From: Cyanobacteriota bacterium
GTDB lineage: Bacteria; Acidobacteriota; Vicinamibacteria; Vicinamibacterales; UBA2999
Direction: 5' to 3'
Length of the DNA: 39,036 nt
Assembly: GCA_019752015.1 (NCBI GenBank)
Contig: JAIEMQ010000055.1
Span: 1-39,036, forward strand
Part shown: one piece after another, positions 8,927 to 38,030 of the stretch
How the letters are laid out: each line of letters opens with the position of its first letter
Position numbering within the stretch: position 1 is the first letter of the stretch
Made by a program: the position numbers and the translations under genes
Notes under the pieces: generated by a model
Told to the model about the DNA's origin: nothing
What the model saw: the letters and a program-made list of their open reading frames with translations, nothing else
The model's database searches: none

Positions 8927-9880
8927 ATGGCAATTCCCACTTTCACTGCCGGCGTCAGCCCTTCGATCGTGGACCTGGTCGGAGACACACCGCTTATCCG
9001 CCTGCGGCGCATCGAGCGCGATCTCGCCGGCGTCGAGCTCTACGCAAAAGCGGAGTGGCAGAACCCGGGCGGGTCGGTGAAGGATCGACCGGCGCTGCGG
9101 ATGGTCCAGGAAGGCATTGCGTCGGGGCAGCTCGTGAAGGGCAAGGTGATCCTCGACGCCACCTCGGGCAACACCGGCATTGCTTACGCGATGATGGGCG
9201 CGGCAATGGGCTTCAGCGTCACGCTGTGCGTGCCGGAGAACGTGACGCCCGAGCGCAAGCGCATCCTGCGCGCGTACGGCGCGGAGTTGATATTCACCAA
9301 TCCGCTCGAGGGATCCGACGGCGCGATTCGCATGGCGCAGGAAATGAACGCGTCGAATCCCGAGAAGTTCTTCTATGCGGATCAGTACAACAACGACTTC
9401 AACTGGAAATCGCACTACGACACGACCGGGCCGGAGATCATCCGCCAGGTCGGCTCGCGACTGACGCACTTTGTGGCGGGCCTCGGGACGAGCGGCACCT
9501 TCATCGGCGTCGGGCGGCGGCTGCGTGAATACAACCGCAACATCGTGCTCGCGTCGATGCAGCCGGATTCGCCGCTGCATGGCCTCGAAGGCCTGAAGCA
9601 CATGGAGTCGGCGATCGTGCCCGGCATCTATGATGCGAAGCTTGCCGACGAAGACGTGCGTGTCGGCACCGAAGAGGCGTACGACATGACGCGGCGGCTC
9701 GCGCAGGAAGAAGGCCTGCTCGTCGGCATTTCGAGCGGCGCGAACCTGGCGGGCGCGTTGAAAGTCGCGCGCAAGGGCGCCGTGATCGCGGTGGTGTTCT
9801 GCGACGGCGGCGAACGGTATTTGTCGGAGCGGTTCTGGGAGAATCCCCCGGAAGGCGCGTCGATCTGCGGGACGAACTGA
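8927..9880 (+). CDS. cysM: Cysteine synthase of the CysM (sulfur-carrier-dependent) type
   Basis: The 317-residue fold-type-II PLP enzyme carries NPGGSVKDRPALRM with PLP Lys52, the substrate loop TSGNTG (79-84), the phosphate-binding GLGTSGT (185-191) and SSGAN (269-273). Resemblance to mycobacterial CysM is close over NPxGS(I/V)KDRPA(V/L)RM, THFVAGLGT(S/T)GT and the VPxxYD segment. That CysM condenses O-phosphoserine with the thiocarboxylated carrier CysO. From memory, its Arg220 selects the phosphate; the equivalent here appears to be Lys224 (GLKHM), still basic. The gene is first in a run with a Mec-type JAMM peptidase and a CysO-MoeZ fusion, which supports the carrier-dependent route over sulfide and O-acetylserine. 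Only the family and context are firm; the substrate is inference. Confidence 0.88.
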   Translation: MAIPTFTAGVSPSIVDLVGDTPLIRLRRIERDLAGVELYAKAEWQNPGGSVKDRPALRMVQEGIASGQLVKGKVILDATSGNTGIAYAMMGAAMGFSVTLCVPENVTPERKRILRAYGAELIFTNPLEGSDGAIRMAQEMNASNPEKFFYADQYNNDFNWKSHYDTTGPEIIRQVGSRLTHFVAGLGTSGTFIGVGRRLREYNRNIVLASMQPDSPLHGLEGLKHMESAIVPGIYDAKLADEDVRVGTEEAYDMTRRLAQEEGLLVGISSGANLAGALKVARKGAVIAVVFCDGGERYLSERFWENPPEGASICGTN

Positions 9881-9910: not shown

Positions 9911-12730
9911 ATGATTCGTATCCAGCCGATTCGTGTCGCGATCGCCGTCGCGGCGATCTTCACGGCGCTGGCCGTGCCGTCGGCACAGACCGCGCGGCCG
10001 GCCGCCGTGTCGGACGTGCCGAAGCTGCCGTTCGCCACGTTCACGCTGCCGAATGGATTGCAGGTGATCCTGAGCCAGGATCGCCGGCTGCCGCTCGTTG
10101 CCGTCAACCTGTGGTACCACGTCGGTCCCGCGAACGAAGAGCCCGGCCGCACCGGCTTCGCGCACCTGTTCGAGCACCTGATGTTTCAGGGCTCGAAGCA
10201 CACGCCTCCCGATTCGCACTTCCCGATGCTCGAAGCCGCCGGCGCCACCGACATCAACGGCACCACCGACTACGACCGCACGAATTACTTCGAGACGCTG
10301 CCGTCGAACCAGCTCGAGCTGGCGCTGTGGATCGAGTCCGATCGGATGGGGTATCTGCTCGACACGGTCGATCAGGCGGCGCTGTCGAATCAGCAGGACG
10401 TGGTCCGCAACGAGCGCCGCCAGAGCCTCGAGAACGTGCCGTACGGAATCGCTGAAGAAGCGCTCGTGCACCTGCTCTATCCGAAAGGCCATCCGTACTA
10501 CGGCTACGTGATCGGATCGCACGAAGACATCCAGGCGGCGAAGCTCGAAGACGTCAAGGATTTCTTCAAGCGCTATTACGCGCCCAACAACGCGAGCCTG
10601 GCGATCGTCGGCGACTTCGATCCGGCGGCGGCGCGCTCGCTGGTGGAGAAGTACTTCGGCACGCTCAAGCGCGGACCGGCGGTCCCGCCGATCGGCGCCG
10701 CGACGCCGCCGATCACGACGGAACGCCGCGCGACGATCGAGGATCGTATCGAGCTGCCGCGGCTCTACATGGCGTGGCTGACGTCGCCGATCTTCAAGCC
10801 GGGCGATGCCGACGCCGACATCGTGGCGACGCTGCTCGGCGGCGGACGATCGAGCCGGCTCTATAAGAAGCTGGTCTACGAACAGGGACTGGCGCAGGAC
10901 GTCAGCGTGGCGCAGCAGTCGCTGATCCTCGGATCGCAATTCCAGATCACCGTGACCGCCCGGGCGGGAAAGACGCTCGAGGAAATCGAGAAGGCGGTCG
11001 ATGCGGAGCTGCAGATCCTGCGCACCACGCCGCCCGACGCGCGCGAGATCGAGCGCGCCCGCAACACGCTCGAAACGCGCATCATCACCGGCCTCGAAAG
11101 CCTCGGCGGATTCGGCGGCGTCGCCGATCGGCTGAACTCGTACAACCACTATCTGAAGAATCCGGACTACCTGCAGCAGGACATCGCGCGCTACCGCGCC
11201 GTCACACCGGCCAGCGCCCTCGCCTTCGCGAAGGAGCAGCTGACGCCGAACAGTCGCGTGGTCGTGCACGCCGTGAAGGGCACGCCGAATCTGACGTCGC
11301 CGCCGACACCGCCCGCGCAGCAGTCGAAGCCCGGACAGGGCGCCGAATCGGTCAACGTCGACGAGCCGTGGCGCAAGGATCCGCCAGCGCCGCCGGCATC
11401 GCGCACCTACATGCAGGTGCCGGCGCCCGAGTCGATCACGCTCGCGAACGGTTTGACGGTGATGCTGGCGCCGCGTCGCGGGCTGCCGGTGGTGGCGGCG
11501 AACCTCGTGATCAAGACGGGCAGCGACAGCAATCCGGCCGACGCTCCCGGGCTCGCGAACTTCACCGCGGCGATGCTGACGCAGGGGACCAGGACGCGAC
11601 ACGCGTTGCAGATTGCTGATGACACCGCGCAGATCGGCGCCACGCTGACGGCGACCAGCACGATGGACGCATCGACGGTCAGCACGCGATCGCTCAAGAA
11701 GAATTTCTCCACGGCGCTGACGCAGCTTGCCGACGTGGCGCTCAATCCGTCGTTTCCGGCCGACGAGCTCGAGCGCCAGCGCGCCGTCCGTCTCGGACAG
11801 CTCGCGCAGCAGCGCGCGAATCCGCCGGCGCTGGCGGCGACGATTGTCGCCAACGTTCTTTATGGAGAGAGCCATCCGTACGGCTACGCCGAGGCCGGCA
11901 CGGCGGAATCGTTGAAGGCGATGACCTCCGGCAAGATGCGCGCGTTCTGGCAGCAGAACTTCGTGCCGAACAACGCCGCGCTCGTCGTCGCCGGTGACAT
12001 CACGATGGCCGAACTGCGGCCGCTCGTGGACAAGGCGTTCGGCGCGTGGCAGCGCGGGACACCCGCGCGTCCGGCGTTGACGACGCCGCCGTACGCACCT
12101 TCGAAAGTCGTGATCGTCGATCGTCCCGGCGCACCGCAAACGCAGCTGCGCGTGGCGATGATTGGCGCGGCGCGTTCGTCACCCGACTTCCGGCCCGCGC
12201 AGGTGATGAACACCGCGCTCGGCGGACTGTTCTCGAGCCGCATCAACATGAACCTGCGCGAGAAGAACGGCTATAGCTATGGCGCCTCATCGCAGTTCAT
12301 GTTCCGCAAGGCGCCGGGTCCATTCCAGGTCGGCAGCGGCGTGCGCACCGACGTCACCGGCGCGGCGGCGCAGGAAATCATCAACGAGCTGAAGGGCATG
12401 GCCGCCGGCGCCATGCCCGCGGAAGAATTGAAGCGGTCGAAGGACGCGCTCACGTATTCGCTGCCGGGCGCGTTCGAGACGAGCGCCGACACCGCCGCGA
12501 GCCTCGCGAACATCTATACCTACGACCTGGGACTTGATTACTACGCGACATATGCGGAGAGCGTCTACGCGGTGACCGCCGAACAGGCGCTGGGCGTGGC
12601 GAAGAAGTACCTGGTGCCAGACCGTTTTGTCGTCGTGGCGATTGGCGATCGATCGAAGATCGAGGCGGACTTGAAGAAGCTCAATCTGCCGATCGAGGTT
12701 CGCGACGCCGACGGGAAGCTGGTCAAGTAG
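9911..12730 (+). CDS. M16 (insulinase/pitrilysin-like) zinc peptidase, fused two-half form, exported
   Basis: This 939-residue protein starts with a signal peptide (MIRIQPIRVAIAVAAIFTAL then AVPSAQT). The first half contains the inverted zinc motif HLFEH (85-89) in GFAHLFEHLMFQGS and a downstream NERRQSLEN glutamate, so it is catalytically competent. The second half, starting about residue 415, repeats the M16 fold (ITLANGLTVMLAPRRGLPVV, then GLANFTAAMLTQGT) but lacks the zinc motif, as expected for the regulatory half. Late landmarks SSRINMNLREKNGYSYGASS fit the C-terminal M16 domain. A proline-rich linker (about 458-488) separates the halves. An AGGAG ribosome site precedes ATG 9911 and the gene lies 30 bases after cysM and 7 bases before mec, so it is probably cotranscribed. 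It acts outside the cytoplasm and need not be part of the sulfur pathway. Confidence 0.9.
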   Translation: MIRIQPIRVAIAVAAIFTALAVPSAQTARPAAVSDVPKLPFATFTLPNGLQVILSQDRRLPLVAVNLWYHVGPANEEPGRTGFAHLFEHLMFQGSKHTPPDSHFPMLEAAGATDINGTTDYDRTNYFETLPSNQLELALWIESDRMGYLLDTVDQAALSNQQDVVRNERRQSLENVPYGIAEEALVHLLYPKGHPYYGYVIGSHEDIQAAKLEDVKDFFKRYYAPNNASLAIVGDFDPAAARSLVEKYFGTLKRGPAVPPIGAATPPITTERRATIEDRIELPRLYMAWLTSPIFKPGDADADIVATLLGGGRSSRLYKKLVYEQGLAQDVSVAQQSLILGSQFQITVTARAGKTLEEIEKAVDAELQILRTTPPDAREIERARNTLETRIITGLESLGGFGGVADRLNSYNHYLKNPDYLQQDIARYRAVTPASALAFAKEQLTPNSRVVVHAVKGTPNLTSPPTPPAQQSKPGQGAESVNVDEPWRKDPPAPPASRTYMQVPAPESITLANGLTVMLAPRRGLPVVAANLVIKTGSDSNPADAPGLANFTAAMLTQGTRTRHALQIADDTAQIGATLTATSTMDASTVSTRSLKKNFSTALTQLADVALNPSFPADELERQRAVRLGQLAQQRANPPALAATIVANVLYGESHPYGYAEAGTAESLKAMTSGKMRAFWQQNFVPNNAALVVAGDITMAELRPLVDKAFGAWQRGTPARPALTTPPYAPSKVVIVDRPGAPQTQLRVAMIGAARSSPDFRPAQVMNTALGGLFSSRINMNLREKNGYSYGASSQFMFRKAPGPFQVGSGVRTDVTGAAAQEIINELKGMAAGAMPAEELKRSKDALTYSLPGAFETSADTAASLANIYTYDLGLDYYATYAESVYAVTAEQALGVAKKYLVPDRFVVVAIGDRSKIEADLKKLNLPIEVRDADGKLVK

Positions 12731-12737
12731 CGCGTTG

Positions 12738-13151
12738 ATGTCGATTCGGTTGATGCCGGAGGTGGACGCGGCGATCCGTGCCCACGGACGGGAAACGTTT
12801 CCTCACGAGTGCTGCGGCGCCATGCTCGGCAGGGACGGCGTCGTCAGCGAAGCGTTCAAGCTGCCGAATACCACCGGGGAAGGGCCGCGGCGGCGTTTCC
12901 TGGTGCGGCCGGACGACTATCGCGTGGCCGAGAAGCGCGCCGGCGAGGCGGGACTGGATCTGCTGGGGTTCTATCACTCGCATCCGGATCATCCGGCAAG
13001 GCCGTCGCAGTACGATCTCGATCACGCGTGGCCGTTTTTCTCCTACGTGATCGTGTCGGTAATGGCCGGCGAAGATAAATTGCTGACGTCGTGGCGATTG
13101 AAGGACGATCGCTCGGCGTTTGATGAAGAACAAATAACGAAGAACGAATAA
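12738..13151 (+). CDS. mec: JAMM/MPN+ metallopeptidase of the Mec type
   Basis: I take ATG 12738, giving 137 residues; a TTG one codon earlier is possible. The zinc-peptidase signature is complete: Glu24 in FPHECCG, then HSHPDHPARPSQYDLD with His80, His82, Ser90 and Asp93 (pattern HxHP...SxxD). Mycobacterial Mec+ of this family removes cysteine from CysO-cysteine, and archaeal and eukaryotic relatives cut after the Gly-Gly of ubiquitin-fold proteins. Here it lies between the cysM-M16 genes and the CysO-like fusion, the usual mec/cysO/cysM association. The last eight codons and the stop (EEQITKNE) run into a 14-bp tandem repeat, so the C-terminus is repeat-encoded. Predicted job: release cysteine from the carrier and possibly also mature the fused carrier. 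The second role is inference. Confidence 0.88.
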   Translation: MSIRLMPEVDAAIRAHGRETFPHECCGAMLGRDGVVSEAFKLPNTTGEGPRRRFLVRPDDYRVAEKRAGEAGLDLLGFYHSHPDHPARPSQYDLDHAWPFFSYVIVSVMAGEDKLLTSWRLKDDRSAFDEEQITKNE

Positions 13152-13222
13152 CGAAGAACGAATAACGAAGAACGAATAACGAAGAACGAATAACGAAGAA
13201 CGAATAACGAAGAACGAATAAC
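13125..13222 (+). repeat. Tandem repeat, 14-bp unit GAAGAACGAATAAC, 7 copies
   Basis: Seven head-to-tail copies fill the end of mec and the spacer before the CysO-MoeZ fusion. The first copy (13125-13138) has one substitution, and the next six, 13139-13222, are identical. The stop of mec lies in the second copy and the next ATG is four bases after the last copy. Because 14 is not a multiple of 3, the unit cannot be translated indefinitely. The array is A-rich in a GC-rich neighbourhood and has no spacers, so it is a microsatellite-like array rather than CRISPR. Confidence 0.95.
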
Positions 13223-13226
13223 AAAC

Positions 13227-14678
13227 ATGGCGACCAAGATCCTGATCCCGACCCCGCTGCGTCCGTTCACCGACAAGCTCGATGCCGTCGAAGTCGACGG
13301 CGCCAACATCGGCGAGCTGCTGAAGAACCTGACCACGAAATACGGCGGGCTCAGGCAGCATCTCTATTCCGCCGACGGCAAGCTGCGCAGCTTCGTCAAC
13401 ATTTACGTGAATGACGATGACATTCGGTACTTGCAGAAGGATCAGACGCCGCTGAAGGCGGGGGATACCGTCAGCATCATCCCATCGGTCGCCGGCGGCG
13501 CACCGACGGTTGCGGAGGAATTGCCGCAGCTGTCCGGCGAGGAGATCAAGCGCTATAGCCGGCACCTGATCATGCCGGAGGTCGGCGTCGAGGGGCAGCG
13601 CAAGCTGAAAGCGGCGAAGGTGCTCTGCATCGGCGCCGGCGGACTCGGCTCGCCCGCGGCGATGTATCTGGCCGCCGCCGGCATCGGCACGATCGGCATC
13701 GTTGATTTCGACGTCGTGGATTTCTCGAATCTGCAGCGGCAGATCATTCACGGCACTCCGGACGTCGGACGGGCAAAGCTCGCGTCGGCGAAGGATCGCC
13801 TTGGCGCGCTCAATCCGAACGTCCACATCGAGACCTACGACGCAGCACTCAGCTCGGAGAATGCCATTCGCCTGTTCGAGCCGTACGATGTGATTCTCGA
13901 CGGCACCGACAATTTCCCGACCCGATATCTCGTCAACGACGCGTGCGTGTTGACCGGCAAGCCGAACGCATACGGCAGCATCTTCCGCTTCGAAGGACAG
14001 GCGTCGGTGTTCGCGACGAAGGAAGGGCCGTGCTATCGCTGCCTCTACCCCGAGCCGCCGCCGCCGGGCCTCGTGCCGAGCTGCGCTGAAGGCGGCGTGT
14101 TCGGCGTGCTGCCGGGCATCATCGGCGTGATCCAGGCGACGGAAACGATCAAGCTGGTGCTGGGCGCGGGCGAGCCGCTGATCGGCCGCTTCCTGATCTA
14201 CGACGCGCTGCGGATGCGCTTCCGCGAATTGAAGCTGCGCAAGGATGCCGATTGCCCGGTGTGCGGCACGCATCCCACGGTGAAAAAGCTGATCGATTAC
14301 GAGCAGTTCTGCGGCGTCGCGCCGCATCAGGTCGCGGCCGCGGCCGCGCCTCCGACATCCATGGACGCATTGACTTCGAAGGAACTGAAAGCTGAGCTCG
14401 ATCGCGGCGATCAAGTCGTGATCGTCGACGTGCGCGAGCCGCAGGAGTTTCAGATCAACCGCCTGCCCGGCTCGATCCTGATTCCGCTTGGCGATCTGCC
14501 GAAGCGGTACGTCGAGCTCGACCCGGACGCCAACATCGTCACGCAGTGCAAGTCGGGGATGCGCTCGGCGAAGGCGCAGGACTTGCTGCGGTCGAAGGGC
14601 TTTACCAAGGTCCGGAACCTGACCGGCGGCGTTCTTGGCTGGATCGACCAGGTCGATCCCGGCCAGCCGAAGTACTAA
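13227..14678 (+). CDS. CysO-like ubiquitin-fold carrier fused to MoeZ/MoeB E1-like adenylyltransferase and rhodanese
   Basis: The 483-residue protein has three parts. Residues 1-91 are a beta-grasp sulfur carrier; FVNIYVNDDDIRYL and GDTVSIIPSVAGG closely match mycobacterial CysO, which ends in AVAGG, and the Gly-Gly is at 90-91. Residues about 101-365 are an E1-like enzyme: GAGGLGS (136-142), Asp160, Arg171, GTDNFPTRYLVNDAC, zinc cysteines at 269/272 and 343/346, and Cys286 at the position of the MOCS3/Uba4 active cysteine. Residues about 380-480 are a rhodanese with active-site CKSGMRS (Cys441). In Mycobacterium a separate MoeZ (E1 plus rhodanese) adenylates and thiocarboxylates CysO for CysM. 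Here carrier and activator are one chain, so the Gly-Gly is followed by APTVAEELPQLSGEE rather than a free carboxylate. No Met occurs between residues 92 and 115 to restart translation. Confidence 0.92.
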   Translation: MATKILIPTPLRPFTDKLDAVEVDGANIGELLKNLTTKYGGLRQHLYSADGKLRSFVNIYVNDDDIRYLQKDQTPLKAGDTVSIIPSVAGGAPTVAEELPQLSGEEIKRYSRHLIMPEVGVEGQRKLKAAKVLCIGAGGLGSPAAMYLAAAGIGTIGIVDFDVVDFSNLQRQIIHGTPDVGRAKLASAKDRLGALNPNVHIETYDAALSSENAIRLFEPYDVILDGTDNFPTRYLVNDACVLTGKPNAYGSIFRFEGQASVFATKEGPCYRCLYPEPPPPGLVPSCAEGGVFGVLPGIIGVIQATETIKLVLGAGEPLIGRFLIYDALRMRFRELKLRKDADCPVCGTHPTVKKLIDYEQFCGVAPHQVAAAAAPPTSMDALTSKELKAELDRGDQVVIVDVREPQEFQINRLPGSILIPLGDLPKRYVELDPDANIVTQCKSGMRSAKAQDLLRSKGFTKVRNLTGGVLGWIDQVDPGQPKY

Positions 14679-14796: not shown

Positions 14797-15276
14797 ATGC
14801 TGAGACTTTCCAAGAAATCTGACTACGCGCTCATCTCGATGAAGCACCTGGCGACCCGGCCCGACGGTGGCGTGTCGTCCAGCGCTCGCGAGATCTCCGA
14901 GTCCTACGACATCCCGCTGGAGCTGCTCGCGAAGGTGTTGCAGCGCCTGGTGCGCGCGCGATTGCTGGTCTCTGTGCAGGGCACGCGCGGCGGATACCGG
15001 CTCGGTCGAAGCGCGCAATCGATCACGGTCGCGGACGTGATCCAGGCCGTCGACGGCCCCGTCACGGTGACGGCCTGTTCCGACGACGATCACAATTGCG
15101 ATCAATACACGAAGTGCAGCATTCGTGACCCGCTGTGGAAGATCAAGAACCGCATCCTCGATGCGCTGAACACGGTCAGCGTCGCGGAAATGGCGGCCGA
15201 AGCGGATGCGCCGCCTCCGCAGCCGACGCACACGGTGTCGCGGATGGTATTCATTCCTCCCGTCGGGGAGAACTGA
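14797..15276 (+). CDS. Rrf2-family transcriptional regulator (IscR/SufR-like)
   Basis: The 159-residue protein begins MLRLSKKSDYALISMKHLA, the Rrf2 winged-helix start, followed by IPLELLAKVLQRLVRARLL (recognition region) and the wing VQGTRGGYRLGR. Three cysteines, Cys94, Cys101 and Cys107 (C-x6-C-x5-C), sit where IscR binds its [2Fe-2S] cluster (C-x5-C-x5-C there), so cluster sensing is likely. It is the first gene of the Fe-S assembly operon, and a 21-bp palindrome lies just upstream. Autorepression of the operon when clusters are plentiful is the expected logic by analogy with IscR and cyanobacterial SufR. The C-terminal tail (about 134-159) is proline- and alanine-rich and not conserved in IscR. 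The stop codon's last base starts a short octamer repeat. Confidence 0.88.
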   Translation: MLRLSKKSDYALISMKHLATRPDGGVSSSAREISESYDIPLELLAKVLQRLVRARLLVSVQGTRGGYRLGRSAQSITVADVIQAVDGPVTVTACSDDDHNCDQYTKCSIRDPLWKIKNRILDALNTVSVAEMAAEADAPPPQPTHTVSRMVFIPPVGEN

Positions 15277-15294: not shown

Positions 15295-16500
15295 ATGATT
15301 TATCTCGATCACCACGCGACGACGCCGGTCGACGCGCGTGTGCTCGAGGCCATGCTGCCGTTCTTCACCGAGAAGTTTGGCAACGCGGCGAGCAGGCAGC
15401 ATCGGTTTGGCTGGGACGCGAACGACGCCGTTGAACGAGCGCGCAAGCAGGTTGCGGCGCTGATCGGCGCGAGTAGCAAGGAGATTGTTTTCACCAGCGG
15501 CGCCACCGAGGCGAACAACCTTGGGATCAAGGGAGTTGCCAGGGCCGCAGAGACTGCCAGGGCCACAGATGGCACAGAAAGCTCAGACGTACGGCGCGAT
15601 CACATTGTCACGATTGCCACTGAGCACAAGGCGGTTCTGGACCCGATCGGTCGGCTGAAGCAAGACGGTTGGCGCGTCACCGTGTTGCCGGTGAAGCACG
15701 ACGGGCTCGTTGACGTGAATGTGGTTGCGGATGCGGTCACGGACCGCACGCTGGTCGTGAGCGTGATGGCGGCGAACAACGAGATCGGCGTCCTGCAGCC
15801 GATCAAGGACCTGGCGGCCGTGGCCCATGCGAAGGGCGCGTTGTTTCACACGGACGCGGTGCAGGCCGCTGGCAAAGTGCCGTTCGATGTCGAAGCGCTC
15901 GGCGTCGATTTGGCGTCGCTGACGGCGCACAAGATCTACGGCCCGAAGGGCGTGGGCGCATTGTATGTGCGCAAAAGGACCGCGATCGCCGCGCAGATAG
16001 AGGGCGGCGGTCACGAGCGTGGGATGCGATCCGGCACGCTGAACGTGCCGGGCATTGTTGGGTTCGGACGCGCGGCGGAAATCGCGCGAGCGGAGATGGC
16101 GAGCGAATCGGCACGCGTGGCGGCGGTGCGCGATCGCCTGCTCAGCCGGTTGAAAGAGCTGACCGGCGGCATGACGGTGAACGGCACGATGACCTCGCGC
16201 CTTCCCGGCAATCTCAACGTCAGCTTCGACGGCGTTGACGGCGAGGCGTTGCTCGTGGGCCTCGACGACATTGCGGTGTCATCCGGCGCAGCGTGCACGC
16301 AGGCCGAACCGTCACATGTGTTGATGGCGCTGGGACACCCGAAGGATCGCGCGCTCGCGTCGCTGCGATTCGGAATCGGCCGCGGCACGACGATGGACGA
16401 GATCGACCGCGCGGCATCTAAGGTGCAGGACGTAGTGGCAAGGTTACGCAAGCAGGACGTTCGGAGAGCGACGGCTTTAGGCGTCGCTGAAGGTAAATGA
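15295..16500 (+). CDS. iscS: Cysteine desulfurase, IscS/NifS class
   Basis: The 401-residue enzyme opens with MIYLDHHATTPVDARVLEAM and has TSGATEANNL, catalytic His111 (TEHKAVLDP), Asp187 and Gln190 in HTDAVQAAGK, PLP Lys213 in TAHKIYGPKG, and the persulfide-forming Cys334 in SSGAACTQAEPSH. The class I cysteine loop distinguishes it from the SufS later in the same operon. It takes sulfur from cysteine and passes it to scaffolds or carriers. Between residues about 82 and 101 an extra segment (ARAAETARATDGTESSDVRR) replaces the short loop usual before the HIVT strand; it is encoded by a duplicated 18-bp DNA repeat. The stop overlaps the next gene's ATG (ATGA), indicating coupled translation. 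Confidence 0.93.
   Translation: MIYLDHHATTPVDARVLEAMLPFFTEKFGNAASRQHRFGWDANDAVERARKQVAALIGASSKEIVFTSGATEANNLGIKGVARAAETARATDGTESSDVRRDHIVTIATEHKAVLDPIGRLKQDGWRVTVLPVKHDGLVDVNVVADAVTDRTLVVSVMAANNEIGVLQPIKDLAAVAHAKGALFHTDAVQAAGKVPFDVEALGVDLASLTAHKIYGPKGVGALYVRKRTAIAAQIEGGGHERGMRSGTLNVPGIVGFGRAAEIARAEMASESARVAAVRDRLLSRLKELTGGMTVNGTMTSRLPGNLNVSFDGVDGEALLVGLDDIAVSSGAACTQAEPSHVLMALGHPKDRALASLRFGIGRGTTMDEIDRAASKVQDVVARLRKQDVRRATALGVAEGK
15537..15572 (+). repeat. Near-perfect 18-bp duplication inside iscS
   Basis: TGCCAGGGCCGCAGAGAC (15537-15554) is followed directly by TGCCAGGGCCACAGATGG (15555-15572). Each copy encodes six residues in frame (ARAAET, ARATDG). The further GGCACAG downstream looks like a partial third unit. 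The element lengthens a surface loop before the HIVT strand. Confidence 0.75.
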
Positions 16501-35965: not shown

Positions 35966-36029
35966 GAGGTCTTGAGGTCTTGAGGTCTTGAGGTCTTAAG
36001 GTCTCGAGGTCTTGAGGTCCTGAGGTCTT
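35966..36029 (-). repeat. Octamer array, 8 units of GAGGTCTT
   Basis: On the plus strand the units read GAGGTCTT (35966, 35974, 35982, 35990), AAGGTCTC (35998), GAGGTCTT (36006), GAGGTCCT (36014) and GAGGTCTT (36022). The array sits one base before the coxE start and runs into the 3' end of mqnB, whose stop (35996-35998) is inside it. Confidence 0.9.
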
Positions 36030-36718
36030 GTGTTAGGCCTGGCACTTGCTAACCAATCAAGAATGGCTCGCTGTGCCGCGTCCGCAGCATCCTGAAGTCG
36101 CCACGACTTCTTATCGCGATTCGTGACGATGTTGCTGATGCCCCGCACCTCGCCAACCTGAATATTGTGGAGATGCGCGACATGAGCAATCGCGGCGCCT
36201 TCCATGTTCTCGACCGCGCCACGCGTTCGACCTTCGATTTCCCGAGCCGAAACTTCCGTTCCGGTGCAGGTCGACACCGTCACGAAACGTGACCGGCGCG
36301 AAACCGGAAACACGTGCATGGGAATCTCATTGAAAATCGGCACGTCACCGTGAATTACCGGAAATCCCAAGGACCGCATGTCGAGAAACCCCGACGGACT
36401 CTGTGCGCCGAGGTCGCCGTAGATTTCTGTATTCGCACAGGCGACGTCGCCGATCTCAAGACCCGCTGACGGATACGCCCCGCCAATTCCACACGCGACG
36501 ATGATGTCTGGCCGATGTTCTGCGATCGCCATGGTGAGACCATGAGCCGCGTTCACGGGGCCGACGCCCGTAACAATGATTCGGATATCGCTCCGATCGC
36601 CAAGATGTGTGCGCAGGAGTGTGGCTTCGAACTCAGTTGCGCTGCAGAGCAGCAACGAGGTCTTGAGGTCCTGAGGTCTTGAGGCCTTATTCACCGGTAA
36701 TGTCGCAGATTCTGCCAC
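35996..36718 (-). CDS. mqnB: Futalosine hydrolase-like nucleosidase (MqnB)
   Basis: From GTG 36718 the product is 240 residues. The phosphorylase/nucleosidase core is clear: [73 protein letters not shown] and [15 protein letters not shown] with the catalytic acid near Asp202. The ISNxVxxRD ending separates futalosine hydrolase from MTA/SAH nucleosidase. It cleaves futalosine to release dehypoxanthine-futalosine in the alternative menaquinone pathway; mqnD lies 2 kb away. Residues about 11-21 ([11 protein letters not shown]) and 231-240 ([10 protein letters not shown]) are both encoded by the octamer repeat, so both ends are repeat-derived. The native start may be a TTG at the following [10 protein letters not shown]. 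Confidence 0.85.
36657..36688 (-). repeat. Octamer array, 4 units of GAGGTCTT
   Basis: Units on the plus strand are GAGGTCTT (36657), GAGGTCCT (36665), GAGGTCTT (36673) and GAGGCCTT (36681). The array lies in the 5' part of mqnB and contributes the [10 protein letters not shown] segment if GTG 36718 is used as start. Confidence 0.85.
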
Positions 36719-37014: not shown

Positions 37015-37046
37015 GAGGTCTTGAGGTCTTAAGGTCTTGAGGTCGC
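37015..37046 (+). repeat. Octamer array, 3-4 units of GAGGTCTT
   Basis: GAGGTCTT (37015), GAGGTCTT (37023), AAGGTCTT (37031) and a degenerate GAGGTCGC (37039) lie between the S23 remnant and the CoxD-like gene. This array supplies GAGG sequences about 20 bases before the GTG start. Confidence 0.85.
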
Positions 37047-37953: not shown

Positions 37954-37958
37954 ACTTC

Positions 37959-38030
37959 CTCAAGACCTCAAGACCTCAAGACCTCAAGACCTCAAGACCT
38001 CAAGACCTCAAGACCTCAAGACCTGTAGAC
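37959..38030 (+). repeat. Octamer array, 8 perfect units of CTCAAGAC plus one degenerate
   Basis: Eight identical CTCAAGAC units run from 37959 to 38022 and a ninth, CTGTAGAC, follows. This is the same octamer as GAGGTCTT in the opposite orientation. The array fills the gap between the coxD-like gene's stop and the mqnD start, ending nine bases before the GTG. Confidence 0.95.

What the first reader, a model, noticed from the sequence alone, without database searches (positions are those of the whole stretch)
12738..14678. CysO-like carrier fused in front of its own E1/rhodanese activator, next to a JAMM peptidase and cysM
In Mycobacterium CysO, MoeZ, Mec and CysM are separate proteins, and CysO ends in a free Gly-Gly. 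Here the Gly-Gly is residues 90-91 of a 483-residue chain and is followed by a linker and the E1. The carrier cannot be thiocarboxylated until cut, unless the internal form acts differently. The adjacent JAMM peptidase belongs to a family that cuts after Gly-Gly, so it may mature a polyprotein carrier, echoing eukaryotic ubiquitin precursors. Fusions of ThiS/MoaD, E1 and JAMM domains have been described before in surveys of prokaryotic ubiquitin-like systems, but I do not know of this exact CysO-E1-rhodanese order with cysM and mec beside it.
Basis: partly seen in the sequence, partly recalled or inferred. Interest (0 to 1): 0.75.

Follow-up and report, generated by a model that had tools for sequence, protein, structure and literature searches.

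The report
Sulfur carrier fused to its own activator
In this bacterium (probably an acidobacterium) and many relatives the small protein that carries sulfur for making cysteine is built as the front end of the enzyme that loads it, so a neighbouring metal-dependent protease very probably has to cut it free; the idea is known from related systems, but I found no description of this arrangement.

Summary
Window 13227-14678 (+) encodes one 483-aa chain: CysO-like carrier (5-91, Gly90-Gly91), linker, ThiF-type E1 (110-345), rhodanese (384-474), just behind a JAMM peptidase (12738-13151); cysM lies 2.9 kb upstream. The genome's other ThiS-family carriers are a MoaD and a ThiS ending in GG; no free CysO was found. 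Of 181 distinct relatives read (not a random sample), 85 are fused, 86 are separate with a 1-27-residue 'cap' after GG, 8 end exactly at GG, 2 are cut off. GG is kept in 180 of 181. JAMM lies beside 155 of 170 assessable fused/capped loci and none of 8 exact ones; in 14 genomes with no detected JAMM, 21 of 22 ThiS-family carriers end at GG. The E1 tree needs 13 fused/split changes (8 forced). Best reading: JAMM cuts after Gly91, freeing carrier and activator. The cut itself is not shown. JAMM maturation of capped or fused carriers is known and was predicted in 2006, so this is a new variant of a known kind. Against: one fusion genome without a JAMM found; six exact carriers in genomes that do have JAMM elsewhere; with relatedness controlled the JAMM link rests on 3-5 shifts.

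The parts
13227..13499 (+). CysO/ThiS-like beta-grasp sulfur-carrier domain (residues 1-91)
   Evidence: Pfam ThiS PF02597 E 1.1e-14; PDB 3dwg_C (CysO of M. tuberculosis) E 1.4e-15 over 4-91
13494..13499 (+). internal Gly90-Gly91, inferred cleavage site after Gly91
   Evidence: invariant in both alignments of 34 fusions; 180 of 181 distinct loci; AF2 pLDDT under 50 for residues 88-96
13500..13538 (+). variable linker between carrier and E1
   Evidence: length and sequence differ from locus to locus
13554..14261 (+). ThiF/MoeB-type E1 adenylation domain
   Evidence: Pfam ThiF E 1.1e-84; nearest folds Uba4, MoeB, ThiF; one of two ThiF-family hits in the genome
14376..14648 (+). C-terminal rhodanese domain, Cys441 invariant
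   Evidence: Pfam Rhodanese E 1.1e-20; C441 invariant
12738..13151 (+). JAMM (Prok-JAB) metallopeptidase, inferred maturation enzyme (Glu24, His80, His82, Ser90, Asp93 counted from the ATG)
   Evidence: Pfam Prok-JAB E 6e-24; motif intact in 152 of 152 full-length distinct homologues, 9 partial ones not judged; AF2 model pLDDT 90.9, matches Rpn11 and P. furiosus JAMM1-SAMP2
8927..9880 (+). cysM-like cysteine synthase
   Evidence: PALP E 1.8e-66; PDB CysM matches; alignment
9911..12730 (+). M16 peptidase-like gene between cysM and JAMM in this genome; not part of the conserved unit
   Evidence: Pfam M16
13125..13222 (+). seven copies of a 14-bp tandem repeat spanning the JAMM stop codon and the gap to the fusion
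   Evidence: TRF 98% match
14797..15276 (+). Rrf2-type regulator, frequent downstream neighbour, followed by a class-V aminotransferase (cysteine-desulfurase-like) 15295-16500
   Evidence: Pfam Rrf2 and Aminotran_5; Rrf2 behind the fusion in many relatives

Best explanation
The chain is a precursor of a CysO-type cysteine pathway. The neighbouring JAMM peptidase cuts after Gly91, which exposes the carrier's GG carboxyl end and frees the E1-rhodanese. The free E1 adenylates CysO; the rhodanese cysteine supplies sulfur and gives CysO-COSH; CysM joins it to a serine derivative (probably O-phosphoserine); and the same JAMM splits the CysO-cysteine bond, as Mec+ does in Mycobacterium. Because JAMM cuts after GG in every turn of that cycle, anything genetically attached behind GG - a few residues or the whole E1 - is removed too. 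So the encoded C-terminus is free to drift, whereas carriers in genomes without JAMM must be encoded ending at GG. Shown here: domain order, GG conservation, JAMM linkage and intact motif, fused/capped/exact pattern, repeated interconversion. Inferred: the cut, thiocarboxylation, cysteine formation, substrate of CysM.
For: GG kept in 180 of 181 distinct loci while linker and cap vary freely. Fused/capped loci: JAMM on the same strand within 1.7 kb in 155, absent from an adequate fetched stretch in 15, 1 not assessable; exact-GG loci: 0 and 8 (Fisher 2e-8, rows related). The nine fused loci without adjacent JAMM (one with too short a stretch) all lie in genomes with a JAMM elsewhere: G031, G126, G186, G138, G124, G127, G187, G189, G136; G186 and G189 are single contigs (fusion 877548, JAMM 2558476; 1001300 and 2028432). 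In 14 genomes where no JAMM was detected, 21 of 22 ThiS-family carriers, MoaD-like ones included, end exactly at GG. Phylum sample of 396: carrier (E<=1e-18) and JAMM (E<=1e-6) co-occur in 159, carrier only 13, JAMM only 19, neither 205. An E1 tree of 163 rows needs 13 fused/split changes, 8 forced by well-supported branches, one inside the window's genus (G008: SVAGGARP-stop). MoaD and ThiS of the same genome end exactly at GG. The only other ThiF-family protein found is in a CBASS-like locus, so this E1 presumably also serves MoaD and ThiS, as MoeZR serves MoaD and CysO (PMC3227635, passages). GG and linker start are predicted flexible. Precedents for the cut: DRJAMM on MoaD-MoaE (PMC8832034, passages); capped PtmS2/PtmS3 and the protease QbsD (PMC6006322, passages).
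Against: No cleavage was observed. G321 carries a fusion (L282) with no JAMM found and a different upstream gene; it is a 650-contig, 91%-complete assembly and one search scored at most 10 candidates per genome. JAMM does not force a cap: 6 of the 8 exact-GG loci (L251-L254, L263, L265) lie in genomes that have a JAMM elsewhere, and two Actinomycetota records have JAMM adjacent and an exact GG (L267, L268). Seven capped loci (L220, L234, L245, L257-L260) have no JAMM in the fetched stretch; the genomes of six of them (not L220) have one elsewhere. One locus (L091, G053) has JAMM, cysM and E1 but no carrier in the operon. On a carrier tree only 3-5 independent shifts to exact ends exist; of 3, JAMM absence went the same way in 1.7 on average, never the other way, and did not differ in 1.3: not significant. 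MoaX of M. tuberculosis is cut after GG by an unidentified protease (PMC4326299, passages).
Confidence: 0.8

Rival explanations
1. The fusion is cut after Gly91, but by another protease; the JAMM only recycles the CysO-cysteine adduct (the Mec+ role).
For: MoaX is cleaved at Gly82-Ser83 by an unidentified protease in M. smegmatis (PMC4326299, passages). 8 of 84 assessable fused loci are not next to JAMM; G321 has a fusion and no JAMM found.
Against: In genomes with no detected JAMM 21 of 22 carriers end at GG; two single-contig chromosomes with unlinked fusions keep a JAMM gene.
Confidence: 0.1
2. The fusion stays intact: the tethered carrier is a docking or regulatory domain, or acts in cis in some unknown way.
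For: A Ub-like domain fused to Campylobacter-type ThiF was argued to have a role of its own because a solo ThiS is present (PMC1779556, passages).
Against: No free CysO found in the genome to replace it. GG invariant in 34 aligned fusions, twice. Fused and split forms interconvert repeatedly. A blocked carboxyl end cannot be adenylated (established E1 chemistry).
Confidence: 0.06
3. Free E1 arises by internal translation start, so cutting is not needed for the activator.
For: 56 of 85 fusions have an in-frame ATG, GTG or TTG in the linker region. In split orthologues E1 can start at an overlapping ATGA or GTG.
Against: 29 of 85 have no start codon there and only 9 of 85 have one with an SD-like 4-mer; this route cannot yield a carrier with a free GG.
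Confidence: 0.04

Closest known systems
M. tuberculosis CysO-MoeZR-Mec+-CysM cysteine pathway
   Same: Same four activities; carrier matches CysO 3dwg_C; MoeZR loads CysO and MoaD (PMC3227635, passages); a Mycobacteriales operon of this kind (Tsukamurella) was read
   Different: In that operon and in Nonomuraea the carrier is separate and ends exactly at GG (L267, L268); here it is the N-terminal part of its E1
Capped sulfur carriers with JAMM partners: PtmS2 and PtmS3 with PtmS1; QbsD (its carrier QbsE is recalled)
   Same: Residues after GG, JAMM gene clustered with the carrier, protease thought to expose GG (PMC6006322, passages)
   Different: Caps MV and C there, in natural-product pathways; here the 'cap' is the E1-rhodanese itself, in a cysteine-synthase neighbourhood
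MoaD-MoaE and SAMP1 linear fusions cut by DRJAMM and HvJAMM1; MoaX
   Same: Ub-like carrier fused through its GG to a partner enzyme and released by cleavage (PMC8832034, PMC4326299, passages)
   Different: The partner there is the MPT-synthase subunit (acceptor side); here it is the activating enzyme
Gene neighbourhood type 4c of Iyer et al. 2006 (ThiS/MoaD, E1-rhodanese, JAB, cysteine synthase), listed for an acidobacterium (Susi)
   Same: Same gene set; the paper also suggests that JAB could free ThiS or MoaD fused to other proteins (PMC1779556, passages)
   Different: The passages seen describe E1 fused to rhodanese only in type 4c; a carrier-E1-rhodanese fusion is not mentioned in them (whole text not read, figures not held)
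Campylobacter-type Ubl-ThiF fusion (same paper)
   Same: Ub-like domain N-terminal to an E1
   Different: Described as distinct from ThiS, typically in operons with a solo ThiS; ours has rhodanese, JAMM and cysM and no second CysO found

Membership tests
CysO-dependent cysteine biosynthesis pathway | CysO-like ThiS-family carrier with GG | tested here: met
CysO-dependent cysteine biosynthesis pathway | carrier encoded with a free GG C-terminus | tested here: not met
   GG followed by linker and E1; no other CysO found in the genome
CysO-dependent cysteine biosynthesis pathway | MoeZ-type E1 plus rhodanese with conserved cysteines | tested here: met
   C269, C272, C286, C343, C346, C441 invariant in 34 fusions
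CysO-dependent cysteine biosynthesis pathway | Mec+-type JAMM peptidase with intact motif | tested here: met
CysO-dependent cysteine biosynthesis pathway | CysM that uses O-phosphoserine | tested here: inconclusive
   Lys where a Mycobacteriales CysM has Arg (GLKHM against GLRNL; that this is the OPS-binding Arg is recalled). No cysE over the curated cut-off in the genome (best 40.6 of 210.65 bits)
CysO-dependent cysteine biosynthesis pathway | thiocarboxylated carrier gives cysteine | not testable with these tools
   needs biochemistry
JAMM-matured capped or fused sulfur carriers | residues after GG and a JAMM gene in the genome, usually adjacent | tested here: met
   for this window; for relatives:
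JAMM-matured capped or fused sulfur carriers | JAMM cleaves after the second Gly | not testable with these tools
   needs a cleavage assay
Ub-like conjugation systems with E1, E2 and JAB (Bil/CBASS-like) | E2-like protein in the operon | tested here: not met
   none among the six neighbours scanned; the genome's CBASS-like E1 with an E2-like neighbour is elsewhere (E2 by inspection)
Campylobacter-type Ubl-ThiF | solo ThiS in the same operon, no rhodanese | tested here: not met
   rhodanese present; the ThiS gene is on contig C1, the fusion on C46

The most novel reading that the evidence does not exclude
In many lineages of a bacterial phylum the cysteine sulfur carrier is encoded only as an inactive precursor (fused to its E1 or capped), because the JAMM protease of the catalytic cycle doubles as maturase and removes all constraint on what follows GG. 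That freedom has been put to use: in many split operons the cap is cysteine-rich (72 of 483 cap residues against 0 of 945 fused-linker residues), often with 70-430 nt between GG and the E1 match, so that the 3' end of the carrier gene may act as a cysteine-sensing leader for its own activator.
Probability: 0.25. Interest if true: 0.75.

Novelty: new variant of a known kind. Interest (0 to 1): 0.55.

Why it matters
Eukaryotic ubiquitin and its relatives are made as precursors that must be trimmed to a Gly-Gly end. Here a bacterial sulfur-carrier relative is, in many lineages, encoded only as a precursor, often fused to its own E1, with a JAMM enzyme (the Rpn11 fold) as the likely trimmer. Natural fused, capped and exact forms, fused and split even within one genus, give ready-made substrates to test how a JAMM's recycling role and maturation role relate. 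It also warns annotators: an E1-rhodanese of about 480 aa in these genomes contains the seemingly missing CysO.

Tried and rejected
Chance ORF or assembly fusion: rejected. Separate cysO elsewhere in the genome: none found. Linked E2 or conjugation system: none among six neighbours. Internal initiation as general source of E1: not general. Known RNA family behind the Cys-rich caps: no Rfam match in 10 loci. The conserved stretch behind six 'RCIC/RCVC' caps as a phylum-wide leader: exact pattern in 0 of 396 genomes (the six loci come from the other collection). Intrinsic terminators in the gaps: a rough scan flagged 2 of the 42 gaps printed (L207, L248), so an attenuator is unproven. Phylogenetic control of the exact-end/JAMM link: too few independent shifts. 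Prior description: searches (open-licence PMC only) showed no paper on this fusion in the rows listed; only listings and the passages cited were seen; PMC7315648 (passages) names a cysO in Granulicella but says nothing on the point; a 2009 survey of the E1 superfamily (recalled) was not looked up.

Sampling and rows dropped: the loci are not a random sample. I chose which to fetch: 60 from the class search, 40 from the phylum search, picked mostly because their open frame was short, besides the loci the tools returned; other apparent fusions (long open frames) were not read. For one search L001-L007 and L047 were left out, 20 loci had no carrier hit and one (L044) was cut by Ns; loci with identical carrier and tail were counted once; ten plasmid controls (L267-L276) were kept apart. 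In one search carriers weaker than E 1e-18 were counted as absent. In one search carriers under 60 bits were left out. One search scored at most 10 candidates per genome, so divergent JAMMs may be missed; one search scored all for its 16 genomes. The first JAMM motif test used a wrong expression and found 0; corrected.

Full report
WHAT IS THERE. The window is contig C46 of a 5.9-Mb genome (82 contigs, 100% complete by the tool's estimate). ORF 13227-14678 (+) is 483 aa: carrier domain 5-91, E1 domain 110-345, rhodanese 384-474. The carrier part matches M. tuberculosis CysO (3dwg_C, E 1.4e-15) and the E1 part Uba4, MoeB and ThiF. Directly upstream is a JAMM peptidase gene (12738-13151), its stop inside a 7-copy 14-bp tandem repeat that reaches almost to the fusion's ATG. 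cysM is at 8927-9880, separated from JAMM by an M16-peptidase gene; in most family relatives read cysM directly precedes JAMM. An Rrf2 regulator follows, in many relatives too.

THE GENOME AROUND IT. Three ThiS-family carriers were found: a MoaD next to a MoaE-like gene (VSGG-stop), a ThiS beside a thiG-like gene (FVGGG-stop), and the fusion (gene names beyond the family hits by inspection). Two ThiF-family proteins were found: the fusion and an E1 in a CBASS-like locus. So this E1 is the only candidate found to load MoaD and ThiS too, and a carrier welded to it would be awkward unless released (inference). Two JAB-family hits exist: the neighbour and, below the cut-off, a RadC-like protein. 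No serine acetyltransferase reaches the curated cut-off, which fits a CysM using O-phosphoserine but does not prove it.

HOW COMMON. In the family search 41 of 43 genomes match, in the class search 186 of 193; many of these match only by the E1 or rhodanese part. From those, a phylum sample of 396 genomes and 80 loci of a second collection I read carrier ends with local profile HMMs. Of 181 distinct loci, 85 are fused, 86 have a separate carrier with 1-27 residues after GG, 8 end exactly at GG and 2 are cut off by contig ends. I chose part of the loci, so these are not frequencies. GG is present in 180 of 181; the other (L186) runs off its contig. Some records are titled Bacteroidetes, Ignavibacteriae, Gemmatimonadetes or others; such titles can be wrong.

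THE NATURAL EXPERIMENT. (a) JAMM adjacency (same strand, within 1.7 kb): fused 76 yes, 8 no, 1 not assessable; capped 79 yes, 7 no; exact 0 yes, 8 no (Fisher 2e-8 for 155/15 against 0/8, rows not independent). (b) All nine fused loci without an adjacent JAMM lie in genomes that have one elsewhere, two of them single contigs; so do six of the seven capped ones, the seventh (L220) not tested. (c) In 14 genomes where no JAMM was found, 21 of 22 ThiS-family carriers (MoaD-like ones included) end exactly at GG; the exception is G321. (d) Of the 8 exact-GG loci, six lie in genomes that do have a JAMM elsewhere, two in genomes without: JAMM permits caps, it does not demand them. (e) Genome-level co-occurrence in 396 genomes: 159 both, 13 carrier only, 19 JAMM only, 205 neither. 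(f) JAMM catalytic motif intact in 152 of 152 distinct full-length homologues. (g) An E1 tree of 163 rows needs 13 changes between fused and split, 8 forced by starred branches (FastTree, approximate). One lies within the window's genus: G008 has SVAGGARP-stop with an ATGA overlap. (h) With relatedness controlled, the exact-end/JAMM link has only 3-5 independent shifts and is not significant. (i) Controls outside: two Actinomycetota loci have JAMM adjacent and an exact GG (L267, L268); an Aliarcobacter carrier (cap I; JAMM 2 kb upstream behind a transposase) and a Burkholderia carrier (cap RS; JAMM adjacent) are capped; six carriers with no JAMM in the fetched stretch end at GG.

MECHANISM. 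Best reading (0.8): JAMM cuts after Gly91 and frees both parts; the cycle then runs as in Mycobacterium, where MoeZR loads CysO, CysM makes CysO-cysteine and Mec+ releases cysteine (PMC3227635, passages). Since the recycling cut and the maturation cut are the same reaction at the same GG, a lineage that has the pathway can attach anything behind GG at little cost. That explains caps, fusions, free drift of linker sequence and easy switching, and why carriers in JAMM-less genomes end at GG. The predicted structure fits: 386 of 483 residues have pLDDT 70 or more, residues 88-96 under 50 (domain placement not interpretable, pTM 0.57). The JAMM model (pLDDT 90.9) matches Rpn11 and the JAMM1-SAMP2 complex. 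The cut, the thiocarboxylate and the cysteine are inferred.

NOVELTY. JAMM release of fused or capped carriers is known: DRJAMM cuts the MoaD-MoaE fusion (PMC8832034), PtmS2 and PtmS3 have caps MV and C and QbsD is given as the uncapping protease (PMC6006322), MoaX needs cleavage at Gly82 by an unidentified protease (PMC4326299); the 2006 survey suggested that JAB could free ThiS or MoaD fused to other proteins and lists this gene set in an acidobacterium (PMC1779556; passages only in all cases). Not seen in my searches (open-licence PMC only, listings): the carrier-E1-rhodanese fusion and its spread. Hence a new variant of a known kind.

SIDE LEAD. Caps of split carriers are rich in cysteine (72 of 483 residues; fused linkers 0 of 945), for example CCCCCCL, SACCSCCPLL, LRCICS. 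Of 43 capped loci with at least 70 nt between GG and the E1 match, 26 have Cys in the cap; of 38 with less, 5 do. Six loci share a conserved DNA stretch running from the cap's Cys codons through the stop into a CCTGG...CCGGG or CCTGGG pair. A cysteine-sensing leader is conceivable (polycysteine attenuators in mycobacteria are recalled; one search gave only listings), but no Rfam match and few terminator-like sites were found. Three caps are a single Cys, so the encoded precursor equals the pathway's own CysO-cysteine adduct (L237, L247, L258).

Noticed in passing
L237-L243, L245, L246-L249, L266, L182, L197, L202, L207-L210 (just behind the carrier's GG): Cysteine-containing, often Cys-rich C-terminal caps on separate CysO genes, often with a long gap before the E1 gene: possible cysteine-sensing leader inside the 3' end of the carrier gene.
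   Followed up: partly
L182:4268-4483, L197:4268-4480, L202:4268-4490, L208:1715-1936, L209:4268-4470, L210:4268-4469: Conserved DNA stretch from the cap's Cys codons through the stop into an inverted GC-rich pair, shared by six loci; no Rfam match.
   Followed up: partly
L240:1746-1931: Cap reads SPSIAGGCCCNL: the carrier's own SIAGG end appears duplicated, giving two GG sites in tandem.
   Followed up: no
window 13125-13222, 35966-36030, 36657-36688, 37015-37044, 37958-38024: Short-period (8-14 bp) tandem repeats, several of them GAGGTCTT-like; one array spans the JAMM stop codon and so supplies the protein's last residues.
   Followed up: no
window 9911-12730: M16-peptidase gene between cysM and JAMM here; in most family relatives read cysM directly precedes JAMM, and in L040 an M16-like gene lies upstream of cysM.
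   Followed up: no
L005 (G000:C31): Second E1 of the genome: 490-aa E1, an E2-like 154-aa protein and a nucleotidyltransferase-like 325-aa protein, resembling a CBASS-type locus (by inspection).
   Followed up: no
L282 (G321): Fusion with no JAMM found and an unrelated gene upstream; fragmented assembly.
   Followed up: partly
L091 (G053): cysM, JAMM and E1-rhodanese in a row but no carrier found between JAMM and E1; the same genus's G052 (L117) is fused.
   Followed up: no
L251-L255, L263-L265: CysO-like carriers with exact GG and no adjacent JAMM; six of the eight lie in genomes with a JAMM elsewhere, and two genomes (G453, G404) also hold another CysO copy in a long open frame.
   Followed up: partly
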